IMG/VR virus record: IMGVR_UViG_3300050821_001977
Location: 1-25,777 of that record
Strand: one strand, 5' to 3'
DNA: 25,777 bases
DNA from: a virus
Below the pieces are notes generated by a model. It saw only the letters and a program-made list of their open reading frames with translations. It did no database searches and had not been told where the DNA came from. The position numbers and the translations under genes were made by a program. This document shows positions 1,277 through 15,878 of the stretch, in pieces (within the stretch, counting starts at the first letter, position 1; every line of letters begins with the position of its first letter).

Positions 1277-1305
1277 TTGACCCCACACCGGGAGTGGGTT
1301 ATATT
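1277..1305 (+). promoter_or_regulatory. Sigma-70 type promoter of the first HNH endonuclease
   Basis: TTGACC at 1277-1282 is followed after exactly 17 bases by TATATT at 1300-1305, a near-consensus housekeeping promoter. Seven bases downstream of the -10 hexamer is 1312, the A of the ATG start, so transcription is predicted to start at or within a base or two of the start codon. Confidence 0.75.
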
Positions 1306-1311
1306 TTGTTT

Positions 1312-1977
1312 ATGGCAACCATCTTTACCGAGACCGGCACCCAGCGATCTCACAACAGGTTCGAGGGTCGACCCTGCAAGAACTGCGGGAGCGCAACCCG
1401 CTACGTCAGCGGTCGAGGCTGTGTCGCGTGTATCAATGCGCGGACGAACAAGGCGAAGATCGAGAACCGCGAGAGGTACCTCGCACACAAGCACGCGTCT
1501 GCGCACCGGACCTGGAAGAAAAAATCCGCGATCCGAAAGGCGGCGCAGGCGAAGCGGGCGGAGGAGTCCCGGCAGCGGACGGCGCGTTTTGTCGATCTGA
1601 TACGGTTCGGTGTTGAGAACGAGATGTCATTTCCCGCCATAGCGAGCGCGATAGGTAGGAGGCTCACCGCAGTTACGAACGCCGCCGCGAGGGCTGGTAT
1701 CAAGGGTGTTGGCCGTTCATCGGGTAACCTGTACACCGGTATGCCCCAGGCACAGTTTCTGATACGTGCGATGGCGACCCCGAAGTGGGTCGACCAGACC
1801 GCGATCCTTGAGATATATCGCGAGCGCGACAAAAGGCGTCTGGACGGTGAGGACGCCGTCGTCGATCACATAGTGCCGATCAAGCACCCGCGGGTCTGCG
1901 GGCTACACGTCCCCTGGAACCTGTGTATAATCAATAACATAGACAACCAAAAGAAAAGTAACAAATTTGAGGGGTGA
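1312..1977 (+). CDS. HNH homing endonuclease (free-standing)
   Basis: A 221-residue protein. A zinc-binding pair of Cys knuckles lies at C22/C25 and C37/C40, followed by a strongly basic stretch (about 43-92) and a helix-turn-helix-like segment at about 104-130 (FPAIASAIGRRLTAVTNAAA). The C-terminal HNH domain reads DHIVPIKHPRVCGLHVPWN at residues 185-203, followed by IDNQKKSNKF, matching the phage HNH pattern with catalytic His186. It should cut a DNA target site and promote its own spread. I chose the ATG at 1312 over a GTG at 1294 because the latter lies inside the promoter. No Shine-Dalgarno precedes 1312, consistent with leaderless initiation. The gene is a self-contained unit bracketed by direct repeats. 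Confidence 0.85.
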   Translation: MATIFTETGTQRSHNRFEGRPCKNCGSATRYVSGRGCVACINARTNKAKIENRERYLAHKHASAHRTWKKKSAIRKAAQAKRAEESRQRTARFVDLIRFGVENEMSFPAIASAIGRRLTAVTNAAARAGIKGVGRSSGNLYTGMPQAQFLIRAMATPKWVDQTAILEIYRERDKRRLDGEDAVVDHIVPIKHPRVCGLHVPWNLCIINNIDNQKKSNKFEG

Positions 1978-8581: not shown

Positions 8582-8886
8582 TTGGTGACGCGGTAGCGGC
8601 CGGCAAGCGTGGCAACACCTACGCCAAAGGCCCTGAATTTAAAAAGAAAAACTCCGAAGGACGTAGCTACAAACACGTCGAAGGGAAACGCGCCAGCCAC
8701 GGTGGCGGTGACCATGAGACAAAGAAAGTTGCCAAGAGCGCGCACAAGACAGGACCGCGCCCGGGCACCAACACGTCCGACAAGCAGGCGCCGCACAAGC
8801 AGAAAGAGCGCAAAGAAGTACGCCACGTCGACCAGGGACAGATCCTGAACGAGTGGTGCGCTGGAAAGCGCGGCAGTTATAAATAA
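8578..8886 (+). CDS. Small Lys/His-rich basic protein
   Basis: A 102-residue protein coupled to the previous gene by an ATGA overlap at 8578. It is strongly basic throughout (for example EFKKKNSEGRSYKHVEGKRA and HKQKERKEVRHVD), with a single Cys near the end (NEWCAGKRGSYK). Its stop codon shares one base with the start of the second endonuclease (TAATG). It may bind nucleic acid or be packaged in the virion. No family recognised. Confidence 0.55.
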   Translation: MIGDAVAAGKRGNTYAKGPEFKKKNSEGRSYKHVEGKRASHGGGDHETKKVAKSAHKTGPRPGTNTSDKQAPHKQKERKEVRHVDQGQILNEWCAGKRGSYK

Positions 8887-9401
8887 TGCCAGCGAATCAC
8901 ATCACATGGGTCTGTCCGAAAGGACATGATAAACGTGCAGTTGGTAAGACCAAACGCGGCATGTGTAAACTATGTGAGCGCGAGCGCTCCGCTGCGCAAC
9001 GCGGAACCCCCGCCAGGATCGCAACGTCAGCGAGATATACGGCAGCGAATAAACAGCGATTAGCTGAATACGGTGCGCGCTATATACGAGAAAATCGCGA
9101 TAGATTAAATGCTAAAGAAGCAGCGCGTCGCGCGATGAAACTTAATCAGGAATGCATCTGCTGTTCAAAAGAGCAGAAGCTCCAACTTTATCAGATAGCG
9201 GCGATGGTCTCATACGATGTAGATCACCGAGTGCCTTTGGCACTCGGAGGTCATCATTGTGTGAAAAATCTTCAGCCGCTTTCTGAAGCAGATCACAGCA
9301 GAAAAACAGCGGATGACGTTCGTCGCATACGTGACACACGTGTACGCAACAAACTTCTGCGCCAATGGCCGCGACCAAGTGCGGTGGGAGAAATATCTTG
9401 A
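8886..9401 (+). CDS. HNH homing endonuclease (free-standing, seamlessly inserted)
   Basis: A 171-residue protein. An N-terminal zinc motif C10-x3-H14 ... C27-x2-C30 is followed by a basic helical linker (about 31-88) and a C-terminal HNH domain. Zinc ligands are likely in ECICC at 89-93, the catalytic DVDHRVPLALGGHH is at 111-124, then N128 and H137. It should be a site-specific DNA endonuclease spreading itself among related phages. The start ATG overlaps the upstream stop (TAATG) and its stop overlaps a downstream TTG start (TTGA), so it sits between two genes with no spare sequence. Codons are clearly more AT-rich than in the neighbours, suggesting recent acquisition. Confidence 0.85.
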   Translation: MPANHITWVCPKGHDKRAVGKTKRGMCKLCERERSAAQRGTPARIATSARYTAANKQRLAEYGARYIRENRDRLNAKEAARRAMKLNQECICCSKEQKLQLYQIAAMVSYDVDHRVPLALGGHHCVKNLQPLSEADHSRKTADDVRRIRDTRVRNKLLRQWPRPSAVGEIS

Positions 9402-12396: not shown

Positions 12397-12935
12397 TGCT
12401 CACCGAAGAATTAGAAGACGTCGGCCGTCGCACGCGAGTGCTACGCGATCGCGTGCTCGTGAAGGTACTCCCGTATGTACATCCGACGCTGGTAACTCCC
12501 GGTATCGAGGTACATAAGGGGGTAGTAATCGCGGTTGGCTATGGCCGGCGCCAGCGGCGTAAGGTCGCGTTCAAGCAAGAGATCAGCGACGGGCCGCCCG
12601 TGCTGAGCGCGGATGGAAAGGTCATGCAGTTCGCGAAGAGCAAGCTCTCGGGCAAGACGCTGTGGTTCGAGGACGGTCCAGAGACGGGCGCGATAATTCC
12701 GATGCAAGTGAAGCCAGGCGACGTGATCGAGTTCAGCTTCCGCAATATTACCTTCGTCGACTTCGATAAGGTAGGATTCCCGGGCATCGGCGACCTCGCG
12801 TTTGTCTGGCAAAAAGCGGTGTATAGCGTCGACCCGGACGAGTCGCTGAACGAGTGCCTGATGTGGCAGCAGAGCGCCGGCTACGACCGCAAAGGCAATT
12901 TTATGAGCGGGAGCGAAGATTGGCACCGGGCATGA
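12393..12935 (+). CDS. Second, enlarged GroES-like protein
   Basis: A 180-residue protein starting in an ATGA overlap at 12393. Residues 13-50 read TRVLRDRVLVKVLP, then TPGIEVHKGVVIAVGYG, the standard first half of the GroES barrel (RVIVK ... GGIVL ... GEVLAVG). Residues 107-118 (VKPGDVIEFSFR) match the VGDIV strand. Between them is an insert of about 50 residues with LSGKTLWFEDGPETGAII, and an extension follows residue 135. It is nearly twice GroES size, so it may pair with the first protein in a mixed ring, cap GroEL differently or have a new role. The tandem arrangement is clear from sequence; the functions are inferred. Confidence 0.7.
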   Translation: MMLTEELEDVGRRTRVLRDRVLVKVLPYVHPTLVTPGIEVHKGVVIAVGYGRRQRRKVAFKQEISDGPPVLSADGKVMQFAKSKLSGKTLWFEDGPETGAIIPMQVKPGDVIEFSFRNITFVDFDKVGFPGIGDLAFVWQKAVYSVDPDESLNECLMWQQSAGYDRKGNFMSGSEDWHRA

Positions 12936-14014
12936 GCGAGACAGAGCTAGGGTTCACGCCGCCGAAGCACCCGTGGGGCAAGTGGCCGAAGATCAAGCCG
13001 GAGACTGTGGCGCCGCTGCGTGACGACAAGCCGGACCTGTACAACTACATGCCGACCCGGTTCGTCACCAAAGACGAGGCGAAGGCCCGCGGCTGGAAAC
13101 ATTTTTGGGTCGGTGAGATCTGCGTCACCGGGCACCGCGCCGCGCGCTACGTCGCGAACGGCAGCATGTGCGTCGACTGCATCCGCATCGAGAAGGGTCA
13201 GCTGCCGGTGTACGGCAAGGGCGTCCCGGAGCTGGAGGCGGCGCGTCGCCGCAACTACACGCAGAAAAATACTGCGCCGGTCATAGGGCCGCCGGTACCG
13301 AACGCTGCAGAGAAAGCGTTCTTAATGAAGTACGCGGAGCTGAAAGACTTCGCGCTCGCCGCCGACGCGTGCGGGCGCACTGAATCTGAATTTTTGGCGA
13401 TACTGAGCTGGAACGTGACGTTCCGCGAGGCAGTGAACCGGCTCGAAGAGAGTATCGGCGTCGCCAGAACGCAGCAGGTAACGGAAGATTTTGATTGGAC
13501 CGACGACAAGCAGCGAGTTTTTCTGATCACGTACGCCAACACGGCGGACATGAAGCAGGCGCTACGCTCCGTCGGCGCCACCAACGTGCAATTCCACAAG
13601 GAGCTGACCGACAACTCGGACTTTCAGCGCGGTTTTGACGAGGCTACGCAGATTGCGCGGGCTGTGTTCGATCACGCGGCTGGCGCCTCAGCCATAAAGG
13701 GCGACGCGAAGATGCTCGGCCGCATCGCGGCAAACTTTTTTCCTGAAAAGTACGGTGAGAACCTGAAGGTGGACCTCAACGTCAAGCAGAACCTAACGTT
13801 GGACCAGGCACATGCGCAAATTACCAGCTTGCTATCAAGATTTGATCGACAGGGTCTACTCCCCGCTGCCAGAGTCTCTGACGAACTTGTTGAAGAAGCA
13901 GAATATCGGCTCATTGAGTCTGCAGGAGTCGACGAAGCTGATCCAGATCCTGAGCCAGCGGGCGCTGATCCAGGACCAGACCCAAATAGTGACCTGGTTT
14001 CAGGATCCGAGTGA
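12932..14014 (+). CDS. Putative terminase small subunit with N-terminal zinc motif
   Basis: A 360-residue protein from the ATG at 12932, overlapping the previous stop by four bases. Residues 62-83 hold a zinc motif C64-x3-H68-x11-C80-x2-C83 in the style of phage HNH enzymes. Two helix-turn-helix-like repeats follow at about 127-172 (ALAADACGRTESEFLAIL) and 192-236 (MKQALRSVGATNVQFHKELT). Next comes RAVFDHAAGASAIKGDAKML, then IAANFFPEKYGE, the pattern of terminase small subunits. These recognise phage DNA and feed it to the large subunit, encoded immediately downstream. From about residue 295 the frame overlaps the large-subunit gene and its codons turn AT-rich at third positions, so the acidic DP-rich tail is probably a later extension. 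Confidence 0.65.
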   Translation: MSETELGFTPPKHPWGKWPKIKPETVAPLRDDKPDLYNYMPTRFVTKDEAKARGWKHFWVGEICVTGHRAARYVANGSMCVDCIRIEKGQLPVYGKGVPELEAARRRNYTQKNTAPVIGPPVPNAAEKAFLMKYAELKDFALAADACGRTESEFLAILSWNVTFREAVNRLEESIGVARTQQVTEDFDWTDDKQRVFLITYANTADMKQALRSVGATNVQFHKELTDNSDFQRGFDEATQIARAVFDHAAGASAIKGDAKMLGRIAANFFPEKYGENLKVDLNVKQNLTLDQAHAQITSLLSRFDRQGLLPAARVSDELVEEAEYRLIESAGVDEADPDPEPAGADPGPDPNSDLVSGSE

Positions 14015-14720
14015 CCACCCGGCACTGAAGAACTGCCCGTTAGGTAGAAAACACTACCCGAAGCAGATGGAGTTCTTCACCAACGAGTCGATCGACGACG
14101 AGATCGCGCTCTTCGGTGGAAACAGGACAGGGAAAACACACTGCGGGTGCTTCGCGGACGCGCTGCACCTCACCGGGCTCTACCCGGCGTGGTGGCCGGG
14201 ACGAAAATTCAACAAACCCATCAATATGTGGGTAGCGACCGATACCGCGAAGAACACGCGCGATATTTTGCAAGAAAAAATGTGTGGTAAGCCGGGCGTT
14301 GAGCAGGCGTACGGCACCGGGATGATCCCCGGTGACCTTTTGGTGCGGCGGACGGTGAAGCACGGCCTCGCCGACGCGTTCGAGACAGTTTTCGTGCGTC
14401 ACGTGTCCGGCGGGCTCTCGACGCTGCAGTTCAAGTCGTACGACCAGGGCCGTGAAGCGTTCCAGGGTACGGCGCAGGACCGGATCCACCTCGACGAAGA
14501 GCCGAAGCTGGAGATCTACGCCGAGTGCCTGCTCCGGCTCATGAGCACGGTGCCCGGCGAGACGAACGGCACGCTGGTACTGACAGAGACGCCCATGCTA
14601 GGGGTCTCAGACCTGATGATCAAGTTTATGCCGGACCTGTCGCCCGAACCTGACGCCATGCCGGCGCAGAGCTGGGGTAACGAGGAAGAAGAGGAGGTCG
14701 TCGTCGATGAAAACGTGTAG
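13812..14720 (+). CDS. Terminase large subunit, ATPase chain (split gene, N part)
   Basis: A 302-residue chain carrying the packaging ATPase: Walker A GGNRTGKT at 102-109, Walker B IHLDEE at 225-230, and a coupling motif TLVLTETP at 254-261. It ends EEEEEVVVDENV at a TAG where intact terminases continue into the nuclease domain. The continuation is found in the same frame at 15108-15878, after an inserted endonuclease gene. Third positions in the first 203 bases, overlapping the small subunit, are GC-rich in this frame, supporting the early start at 13812, although the ribosome site is weak and later starts are possible. The chain would drive DNA translocation at the portal and must meet its separate nuclease chain to make a complete motor. 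Confidence 0.85.
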   Translation: MRKLPACYQDLIDRVYSPLPESLTNLLKKQNIGSLSLQESTKLIQILSQRALIQDQTQIVTWFQDPSDHPALKNCPLGRKHYPKQMEFFTNESIDDEIALFGGNRTGKTHCGCFADALHLTGLYPAWWPGRKFNKPINMWVATDTAKNTRDILQEKMCGKPGVEQAYGTGMIPGDLLVRRTVKHGLADAFETVFVRHVSGGLSTLQFKSYDQGREAFQGTAQDRIHLDEEPKLEIYAECLLRLMSTVPGETNGTLVLTETPMLGVSDLMIKFMPDLSPEPDAMPAQSWGNEEEEEVVVDENV

Positions 14721-15111
14721 GAATGGACACGCCGTCGGTCGCGATAAACACGGCACTTGTATTGAATGCGGTCGCGCTGCAGTAACACGGTACAGATCTA
14801 AAAACCGTTTGAAAGTAAACGCGCAAGCGGCGCAGCACTATCATAGCGACCCGGTGCATAAAGAGCGGGCTAAATTACGACGTAGAGTAGAGAAAGGTCT
14901 TCCGCAGCCAACGCGTCCAGAGCCAGATCTTTGCGAATGTTGCGCAAAAAAACCGGACAACCGCGCTCTATGTATCGATCACGATCATGAGACAGGAGCA
15001 TTTCGTGGTTGGCTTTGTTACAAATGTAACGCCGGTATCGGTATGCTGGGTGATAATGCGACTGGAATCGAGTTAGCTCGGCGGTATTTTCTAGCCGTGG
15101 AACTTACTTGA
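14707..15111 (+). CDS. Endonuclease VII-family HNH homing endonuclease inside the terminase gene
   Basis: A 134-residue protein. The N-terminal zinc motif is C4-x3-H8-x9-C18-x2-C21. The C-terminal half matches the recombination endonuclease VII family: CECC at 76-79, IDHDHETGAFRGWLCYKCN at 90-108 with catalytic D/H residues and the C104/C107 pair, then IGMLGDN. It starts 14 bases inside the end of the ATPase chain, and its stop overlaps a TTG that starts the nuclease chain (TTGA). It lies in a different frame from the terminase, so it is not an intein. It fills essentially the whole insertion, leaving no room for a group I intron core. Its AT-rich codons mark it as recently acquired. Confidence 0.85.
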   Translation: MKTCRNGHAVGRDKHGTCIECGRAAVTRYRSKNRLKVNAQAAQHYHSDPVHKERAKLRRRVEKGLPQPTRPEPDLCECCAKKPDNRALCIDHDHETGAFRGWLCYKCNAGIGMLGDNATGIELARRYFLAVELT

Positions 15112-15878
15112 AGGCGGTTTTTTTAGATATGGACGACGTCCCTCACTTGAGTGATATCGAGAAGAAGAAAATTCTAGCTGGAGTTCCGTCCTGGCAGCTG
15201 CAGGCGCGAAAGTCCGGCATACCCGGGCACGGTGTCGGCGCGATCTACCCGATACCGGAAGACGTGATGCTGATCCAGCCGTTCGATATCCCGGCGCACT
15301 GGCCGCGATCGTTCGGTATGGACCCGGGCTGGAACTGCACCGCGGTGGTCTGGTTCGCGTGGGACACCGACAACGGATTCAAAGACGCCTCCGGCAACCA
15401 ACGGTTCCCGGCGGTGGCGTACGACGAATACTACCGCGGCCAGGCGGACCCGGCCGTGCACGTCGCGGCGATCAACCGCCGCGGTCCGTGGATACACGGC
15501 GTCATCGACCCCGCCGCGCAGAAGGCGCGCGGTACCGACGGCGAGCTGTTGATTGATACGTACTGCAACTTAGGGCTCAAGGTCAGCAAGGCCGACAACA
15601 CGGTCGTGACCGGGCTCGTGCAGACCTGGGACATGCTCTCGACGCAGCAGCTGCGCATCTTCAACACACTGACGAACTGGCGCAAAGAGGTGCGCCTGTA
15701 CCGCCGCGACGAGAAGGGGAACATCATCAAGAAGAACGACCACCTCATGGATGCCACCCGCTACAACGTCATGAGCGGGTACGAGGTGGCGAAGGCGCCG
15801 CCCGCGACCGACGGCGGGCTCCCGTGGTTCAGCTGGGCGCCAGAGATGGCGACACACGGCGGCATATGGAGTGGGTGA
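15108..15878 (+). CDS. Terminase large subunit, nuclease chain (split gene, C part)
   Basis: A 256-residue chain from the TTG at 15108 in the TTGA overlap. It begins KAVFLDMDDVPHLSDIEKKK, the linker that normally follows the ATPase domain, and then has an RNase H-like nuclease domain: GMDPGWN with D72, GVIDPAAQ with D134, and NDHLMDATRY with D211 and D215. These acidic residues would bind the two metals that cut concatemeric DNA. No conserved residue appears lost, so the fragment looks functional rather than decaying. It needs separate translation, because at least two in-frame stops (14718-14720 and 14745-14747) lie between the parts. The two chains presumably assemble non-covalently. Confidence 0.85.
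   Translation: MKAVFLDMDDVPHLSDIEKKKILAGVPSWQLQARKSGIPGHGVGAIYPIPEDVMLIQPFDIPAHWPRSFGMDPGWNCTAVVWFAWDTDNGFKDASGNQRFPAVAYDEYYRGQADPAVHVAAINRRGPWIHGVIDPAAQKARGTDGELLIDTYCNLGLKVSKADNTVVTGLVQTWDMLSTQQLRIFNTLTNWRKEVRLYRRDEKGNIIKKNDHLMDATRYNVMSGYEVAKAPPATDGGLPWFSWAPEMATHGGIWSG

What the first reader, a model, noticed from the sequence alone, without database searches (positions are those of the whole stretch)
13812..15878. Terminase large subunit split between ATPase and nuclease by an endonuclease VII-family gene
Seen: Walker A and B lie on a 302-residue chain; the nuclease Asp residues (D72, D134, D211/D215) lie on a separate 256-residue chain in the same frame. A complete 134-residue endonuclease occupies nearly all of the gap and overlaps both neighbours (14-base overlap and TTGA). 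At least two in-frame stops rule out readthrough, and there is no space for an intron core. Known: a comparable natural split is the NrdA of phage Aeh1, divided by MobE, where the fragments assemble into active enzyme. Inference: this phage packages DNA with a two-chain motor, and conserved residues on both parts argue against decay. A split exactly at the domain boundary of a packaging motor would be unusual.
Basis: partly seen in the sequence, partly recalled or inferred. Interest (0 to 1): 0.88.

Follow-up and report, generated by a model that had tools for sequence, protein, structure and literature searches.

The report
Two-gene phage packaging motor, mobile endonuclease inserted
This phage makes its DNA-packaging motor protein as two separate chains, and comparison with 223 relatives shows that the break is old and recurs at the same spot, inside the ATPase domain just before its lid, while the endonuclease gene sitting in it is only a recent mobile lodger.

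Summary
In detail: an ATPase chain (13812-14720), an endonuclease VII-family gene (14707-15111) and a nuclease chain (15108-15878) overlap as described, with no intron signal. The nearest relative (L005, 95% identical) and nearly all other close relatives have the same two-chain TerL with no endonuclease. All 71 relatives at >=53% identity are split; among more distant ones split and fused genes mix, and the tree needs at least 12 changes. The break is not exactly at the ATPase/nuclease boundary: the downstream chain carries the ATPase "lid" subdomain plus linker and nuclease. Its start lies exactly 9 residues before the [WM]DDVPH motif in 82 of 135 scored split loci. Both chains are under purifying selection and keep their catalytic residues. 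The junction is colonised repeatedly: EndoVII five times and a second HNH type four times within this clade, with deletion scars in others. Best reading: a stably two-subunit terminase whose chains assemble (inferred), with a free-standing homing-type endonuclease inserted at the second chain's start codon. Separate ATPase and nuclease genes are already reported for Arthrobacter cluster AY phages, so this is a new variant of a known kind.

The parts
13812..14720 (+). TerL N chain (302 aa): ASCE ATPase core without the lid
   Evidence: PF03237 E 1.1e-10; AF2 pLDDT 90.5; best PDB fold matches include D6E, HK97 and T4 large terminases
14115..14138 (+). Walker A, GGNRTGKT (residues 102-109)
   Evidence: N104, R105, G107, K108 invariant in 60 sequences
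14478..14501 (+). Walker B and catalytic Glu, ...LDEE (residues 223-230)
   Evidence: D228, E229, E230 invariant
14583..14594 (+). coupling motif TETP (residues 258-261)
   Evidence: T260 and P261 invariant, T258 nearly so; N chains end 15-49 residues after it
14692..14697 (+). AGGAGG, Shine-Dalgarno-like site inside the codons of the acidic N-chain tail, 9 nt before the ATG at 14707
   Evidence: read directly; a similar GAGGAGG-VVVD-ATGA layout stands before the C-chain start in many empty-site relatives
14707..15107 (+). inserted segment (401 nt, ATGA...TTGA) relative to the empty site of L005, where ATGAAGGCGGT starts the C chain directly
   Evidence: junction comparison
14707..15111 (+). 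EndoVII-family HNH endonuclease (134 aa), Cys pairs at 76-79 and 104-107 and DHDH at 91-94 intact
   Evidence: PF02945, phrog_2633; motifs; dN/dS 0.054 against L012
15108..15878 (+). TerL C chain (256 aa, TTG start): lid subdomain, linker and RNase H-like nuclease
   Evidence: PF17289; P22 gp2 nuclease 4DKW sequence E 9.9e-30 and D6E TerL E 1.6e-6; fold match to 4DKW E 1e-13
15114..15221 (+). lid-equivalent region (C-chain residues about 3-38), upstream of the nuclease domain
   Evidence: aligns with the D6E lid residues up to the linker 230-241 (with PMC5727402); lower AF2 confidence when folded alone
15321..15323 (+). nuclease Asp D72
   Evidence: invariant in 65 sequences
15507..15509 (+). 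nuclease Asp D134
   Evidence: invariant in 65 sequences
15738..15752 (+). nuclease D211, H212 and D215
   Evidence: invariant in 65 sequences

Best explanation
The phage's large terminase is a stable two-subunit enzyme. One gene makes the ASCE ATPase core; the next makes the lid subdomain, linker and RNase H-like nuclease. The chains are read from consecutive, overlapping cistrons (inferred translational coupling) and, by inference, bind each other to rebuild one TerL unit, because the lid that transmits ATP hydrolysis sits on the nuclease chain. The split is ancestral to this clade and arose or was lost many times at the same place in the wider family. The EndoVII gene is a later, free-standing homing-type element that replaced the C chain's ATGA start with an ATGA...TTGA cassette, leaving both TerL chains whole and giving the C chain a TTG start. 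Shown by sequence: anatomy, clade-wide split, empty and occupied sites, scars, selection, position of the break. Inferred: assembly into one motor, homing activity, use of TTG by coupling.
For: All 71 distinct TerLs at >=53% identity to the window's C chain are split; of 223 distinct loci 142 are split and 81 fused. Splits without insert mostly overlap by 1, 4, 8 or 26 nt. The C chain lies in frame +1 (41), +2 (37) or 0 (5) relative to N, so no single frameshift or readthrough could join them. C starts lie exactly 9 aa before [WM]DDVPH in 82 of 135 loci and 99 are ATG; N tail plus C head roughly equals the fused linker of 25-41 residues. dN/dS in comparisons with the window is 0.03-0.15 for N and 0.04-0.22 for C. 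N and C distances correlate in split loci (r 0.72; fused 0.47). The window's nearest relative L005 has the empty site. EndoVII inserts appear 5 times and HNH2 4 times independently in the clade tree, with scars in L021, L057, L037, L054 and L087. Break position: (Terminase_6N spans 61-293 in fused L003, whose junction is near residue 241), PMC5727402.
Against: No experiment and no complex model: only the single chains were folded, and the lid part of the C chain is only moderately confident alone. The D6E alignment that places the lid is remote (E 1.6e-6). EndoVII and HNH2 relatives also sit elsewhere in these genomes (22 of 31 places are off the junction), so specific homing to this junction is not shown. 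The window's C chain has a TTG start with only a weak upstream SD. The tree is a quick search with SH-aLRT support only.
Confidence: 0.82

Rival explanations
1. One reading: insertion of this EndoVII gene created the split in this phage, as MobE did to NrdA in Aeh1.
For: The gene sits exactly at the junction and overlaps both chains; mobE, mobA and seg43 insertions with split genes are known in T4-like phages (PMC2988022).
Against: L005 (95%) and most of the >=53% identity clade are split without the gene; deep members L122, L126, L127 and L129 are also split without insert.
Confidence: 0.04
2. The chains are rejoined by a group I intron, intein, trans-splicing or programmed frameshift, giving one TerL.
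For: Introns and inteins occur in TerL genes (PMC3322345, PMC7156551).
Against: No Rfam hit, no unusual fold, no room besides the ORF, all three relative frames occur in empty-site relatives, and stops separate in-frame pairs.
Confidence: 0.03
3. The chains work separately: the N chain packages alone and the C chain is an independent nuclease.
For: The phi29 packaging ATPase has only a vestigial nuclease domain (PMC7672431, title and abstract); cargo up to 2 kb can lie between the genes.
Against: The lid, which couples ATP hydrolysis to movement in models based on T4, Sf6 and D6E (PMC5727402), is on the C chain; N and C distances stay correlated even with cargo over 300 nt (r 0.71).
Confidence: 0.08
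4. The endonuclease is a working part of the packaging machine rather than a mobile element (as proposed for HNH proteins next to terminases in some cos phages; from memory).
For: It lies in the packaging operon and is under purifying selection.
Against: Absent from the nearest relative and most of the clade; replaced by other families or scars at the same site.
Confidence: 0.03

Closest known systems
Arthrobacter cluster AY phages (e.g. BillyTP, PP978841): TerL ATPase and nuclease domains in two consecutive genes (PMC11920828, PMC12820723)
   Same: Two overlapping consecutive genes carry the TerL domains; most of that cluster has it.
   Different: Different TerL family (nuclease is PF20441, ATPase gene not matched by Pfam); nuclease chain only 198 aa; no endonuclease insert in BillyTP.
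Aeh1 NrdA split by MobE; T4 gene 60 and mobA; Aeromonas phage 25 gp43A/gp43B with seg (reviewed in PMC2988022)
   Same: Essential phage enzyme in pieces with a free-standing homing endonuclease at the break; overlapping cistrons are also described for free-standing endonucleases; fragments give active enzyme in the tested cases.
   Different: Here the split is far more widespread than the endonuclease and predates it, as suspected there for gp43; the gene is a packaging motor, and one site is occupied repeatedly by several endonuclease families.
Large terminase of P22 (gp2) and D6E
   Same: The C chain matches the P22 nuclease domain and the D6E lid, linker and nuclease.
   Different: Those are single chains.
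TerL genes with inteins or introns (Mic1 PMC7156551, Campylobacter phage IBB_35 PMC3322345)
   Same: TerL as a host gene for homing elements.
   Different: Those elements are reported as inteins or introns; here nothing splices out and the chains stay separate.

Membership tests
Terminase large subunit (TerL) | Walker A, Walker B and catalytic Glu of an ASCE ATPase | tested here: met
Terminase large subunit (TerL) | RNase H-like nuclease with conserved Asp residues | tested here: met
Terminase large subunit (TerL) | single polypeptide with both domains | tested here: not met
   split in the window and all 71 distinct TerLs at >=53% identity
Terminase large subunit (TerL) | packages DNA at the portal | not testable with these tools
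   position beside a P22-type portal gene is consistent
Free-standing HNH/EndoVII homing endonuclease | HNH/EndoVII nuclease family with intact metal-site residues | tested here: met
   PF02945 E 8.5e-13 and Cys/DHDH motifs
Free-standing HNH/EndoVII homing endonuclease | patchy presence with empty sites in close relatives | tested here: met
   L005 empty; 5 independent appearances
Free-standing HNH/EndoVII homing endonuclease | cuts the empty allele and is copied into it | not testable with these tools
   no assay possible
Homing-endonuclease-created genes-in-pieces (NrdA Aeh1 type) | uninterrupted single gene in relatives lacking the endonuclease | tested here: not met
   close relatives lacking it are split
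Homing-endonuclease-created genes-in-pieces (NrdA Aeh1 type) | fragments assemble into active enzyme | not testable with these tools
   only indirect support (selection, correlated distances)
Group I intron | conserved catalytic RNA core | tested here: not met
   no Rfam match

The most novel reading that the evidence does not exclude
A heteromeric viral packaging motor in which the ASCE core and the force-transmitting lid are on different polypeptides; the break is a recurrent, structurally permitted fission site that also serves as a docking place for mobile and accessory genes, and separate chains may let the phage tune ATPase and nuclease amounts independently.
Probability: 0.4. Interest if true: 0.8.

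Novelty: new variant of a known kind. Interest (0 to 1): 0.64.

Why it matters
Models of viral DNA packaging make the lid the lever that turns ATP hydrolysis into movement and treat it as one chain with the ATPase core. A natural, recurrent break between the two, in prophages of cultured bacteria as well as in metagenomes, makes it directly testable whether that covalent link is needed. The empty, occupied and scarred sites in close relatives also give a comparative series for how mobile endonucleases enter and leave a gene boundary.

Tried and rejected
Intron or structured RNA at the junction: no Rfam match and an ordinary fold. Programmed frameshift or readthrough: relative frames 0, +1 and +2 all occur. 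Sequence artefact or decay: ruled out by dozens of independent contigs and low dN/dS. N-chain profile against PDB sequences found nothing; fold search did. BillyTP chains found no PDB sequence match, so its break could not be placed on a structure. Paper searches for split terminases found only the cluster AY notes. The 142:81 split-to-fused ratio is not a prevalence estimate, since searches return best matches only.

Full report
Observation. The three genes are as described: N chain 13812-14720, EndoVII 14707-15111, C chain 15108-15878, with overlaps of 14 nt and TTGA, both TerL chains in one frame and at least two in-frame stops between them. Pfam names them Terminase_6N, Endonuclease_7 and Terminase_6C. 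There is no intron match and no unusual RNA fold.

The split does not come from this endonuclease. A scan with the C chain fetched 70 relatives in IMG/VR. Every one in which both parts could be read was split at the same junction, most with no gene between the parts. With more scans of viral contigs and bacterial genomes the set grew to 223 distinct TerLs, 142 split and 81 fused; all 71 at >=53% identity to the window's C chain are split. The window's nearest relative L005 reads ...GAGGAGGTAGTCGTCGATGAAGGCGGTATTCCTTGATATGG, with the C chain starting at that ATG; the window has ATGAAAACG...ACTTGAAGGCGG instead. The insert is thus a 401-nt ATGA...TTGA cassette put at the C chain's start codon, and the C chain now starts with TTG.

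A recurrent break. On a tree of 134 TerLs with fused outgroups the split/fused state needs at least 12 changes, 6 of them forced by well-supported branches. The splits include prophages of cultured Vibrio galatheae, Neptunomonas, Litchfieldella, Halomonas, Azospirillum and Eilatimonas. In 82 of 135 scored split loci the C chain starts exactly 9 residues before the [WM]DDVPH motif, and N chains end 15-49 residues after the coupling motif TxTP; in fused proteins these two motifs are 25-41 residues apart. So little or nothing is lost at the break and its place is nearly fixed.

Where the break lies. C-chain positions 43-215 match the P22 gp2 nuclease construct 4DKW (E 9.9e-30), and positions 7-215 match D6E TerL from about residue 196 on (allowing for a 3-residue numbering offset that I inferred from the residues named in the paper). 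In D6E the lid residues Y213, M216 and R224 precede a linker at 230-241 (PMC5727402), so about 36 residues of lid lie at the start of the C chain. Pfam agrees: Terminase_6N covers residues 61-293 of fused L003, whose junction is near residue 241, but only profile positions 1-151 of 215 on the split N chain of L172. AF2 models: N chain pLDDT 90.5, nearest solved folds are mostly large terminases; C chain pLDDT 83.7, nearest fold 4DKW, with the lid part less certain when folded alone. The break is therefore between ASCE core and lid.

Function. Walker A and B and the nuclease Asp residues are invariant over fused and split sequences. dN/dS against ten relatives is 0.03-0.15 (N) and 0.04-0.22 (C). 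N and C distances correlate in split loci (r 0.72), at least as well as in fused ones (0.47), even with more than 300 nt of cargo between the genes (0.71). Relative frames of +1, +2 and 0 without insert (41, 37, 5) leave no shared frameshift that could join the chains. Two functional chains that assemble is the simplest account; the assembly itself is inferred.

The junction as a docking site. Within the window clade EndoVII genes appear 5 times and a second HNH type 4 times on the tree. Several empty junctions hold remnants: L021 keeps the first 15 and last 27 nt of the L023 gene, L057 the first 44 nt of the L052 gene, L087 both ends of the EndoVII gene, L037 and L054 one end. L017 shows the flanks of the junction duplicated around its EndoVII gene. 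Elsewhere junctions hold HNH genes with NUMOD4 or AP2 motifs, one T5orf172/MUG113 domain, one Tad2-like protein, one MotA_ExbB protein and many unknown ORFs. The window's EndoVII has intact motifs and is under purifying selection (dN/dS 0.054 against L012) but is synonymously more diverged from L012 (dS 2.0) than the flanking TerL genes (0.64-0.78), as expected for separate arrivals. Relatives of these endonucleases also occur at other places in the same genomes (22 of 31 places), so the junction is one repeated site among others.

Literature. Separate ATPase and nuclease genes are stated for Arthrobacter cluster AY phages (PMC11920828, PMC12820723); BillyTP's pair belongs to another TerL family. 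Endonuclease-split enzymes are known in T4-like phages, where an endonuclease entering an already split gene was considered for gp43 (PMC2988022). I found no paper on the recurrent core/lid break or on its repeated occupation; most subscription literature is not held.

Limits. The collections return best matches, so counts are not prevalence. The big tree is a quick search. No complex prediction and no experiment could be run.

Noticed in passing
window 1294-1977 and 8886-9401: Two further HNH/EndoVII-like genes in the same phage (phrog_26577/phrog_1035; PF01844 HNH), so the genome carries at least three.
   Followed up: partly
window 13812-14014: The TerL N chain overlaps the upstream 386-aa gene (12854-14014, possibly TerS) by 203 nt in another frame; the true N start was not settled.
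   Followed up: no
window 13812-14717 against PHROGs: phrog_31467, a 261-position family of 'unknown function', matches the lone TerL ATPase chain (E 2.9e-47), while nuclease-sized families (phrog_5653, phrog_10250) are called terminase: split TerLs seem to be under-annotated.
   Followed up: no
L017:1320-1960: Tandem duplication of the junction flanks (C-chain head and N-chain tail repeated) around an EndoVII gene, perhaps an imprecise insertion event.
   Followed up: no
junction cargo ORFs of alignment A5: One cargo gene between split TerL halves is Tad2-like (Thoeris anti-defence, E 1.4e-23); another (in L291) is MotA_ExbB-like.
   Followed up: no
L159, L226, L291, L307: TerL halves separated by about 1.2-2 kb, in L226, L291 and L307 with several unidentified ORFs.
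   Followed up: partly
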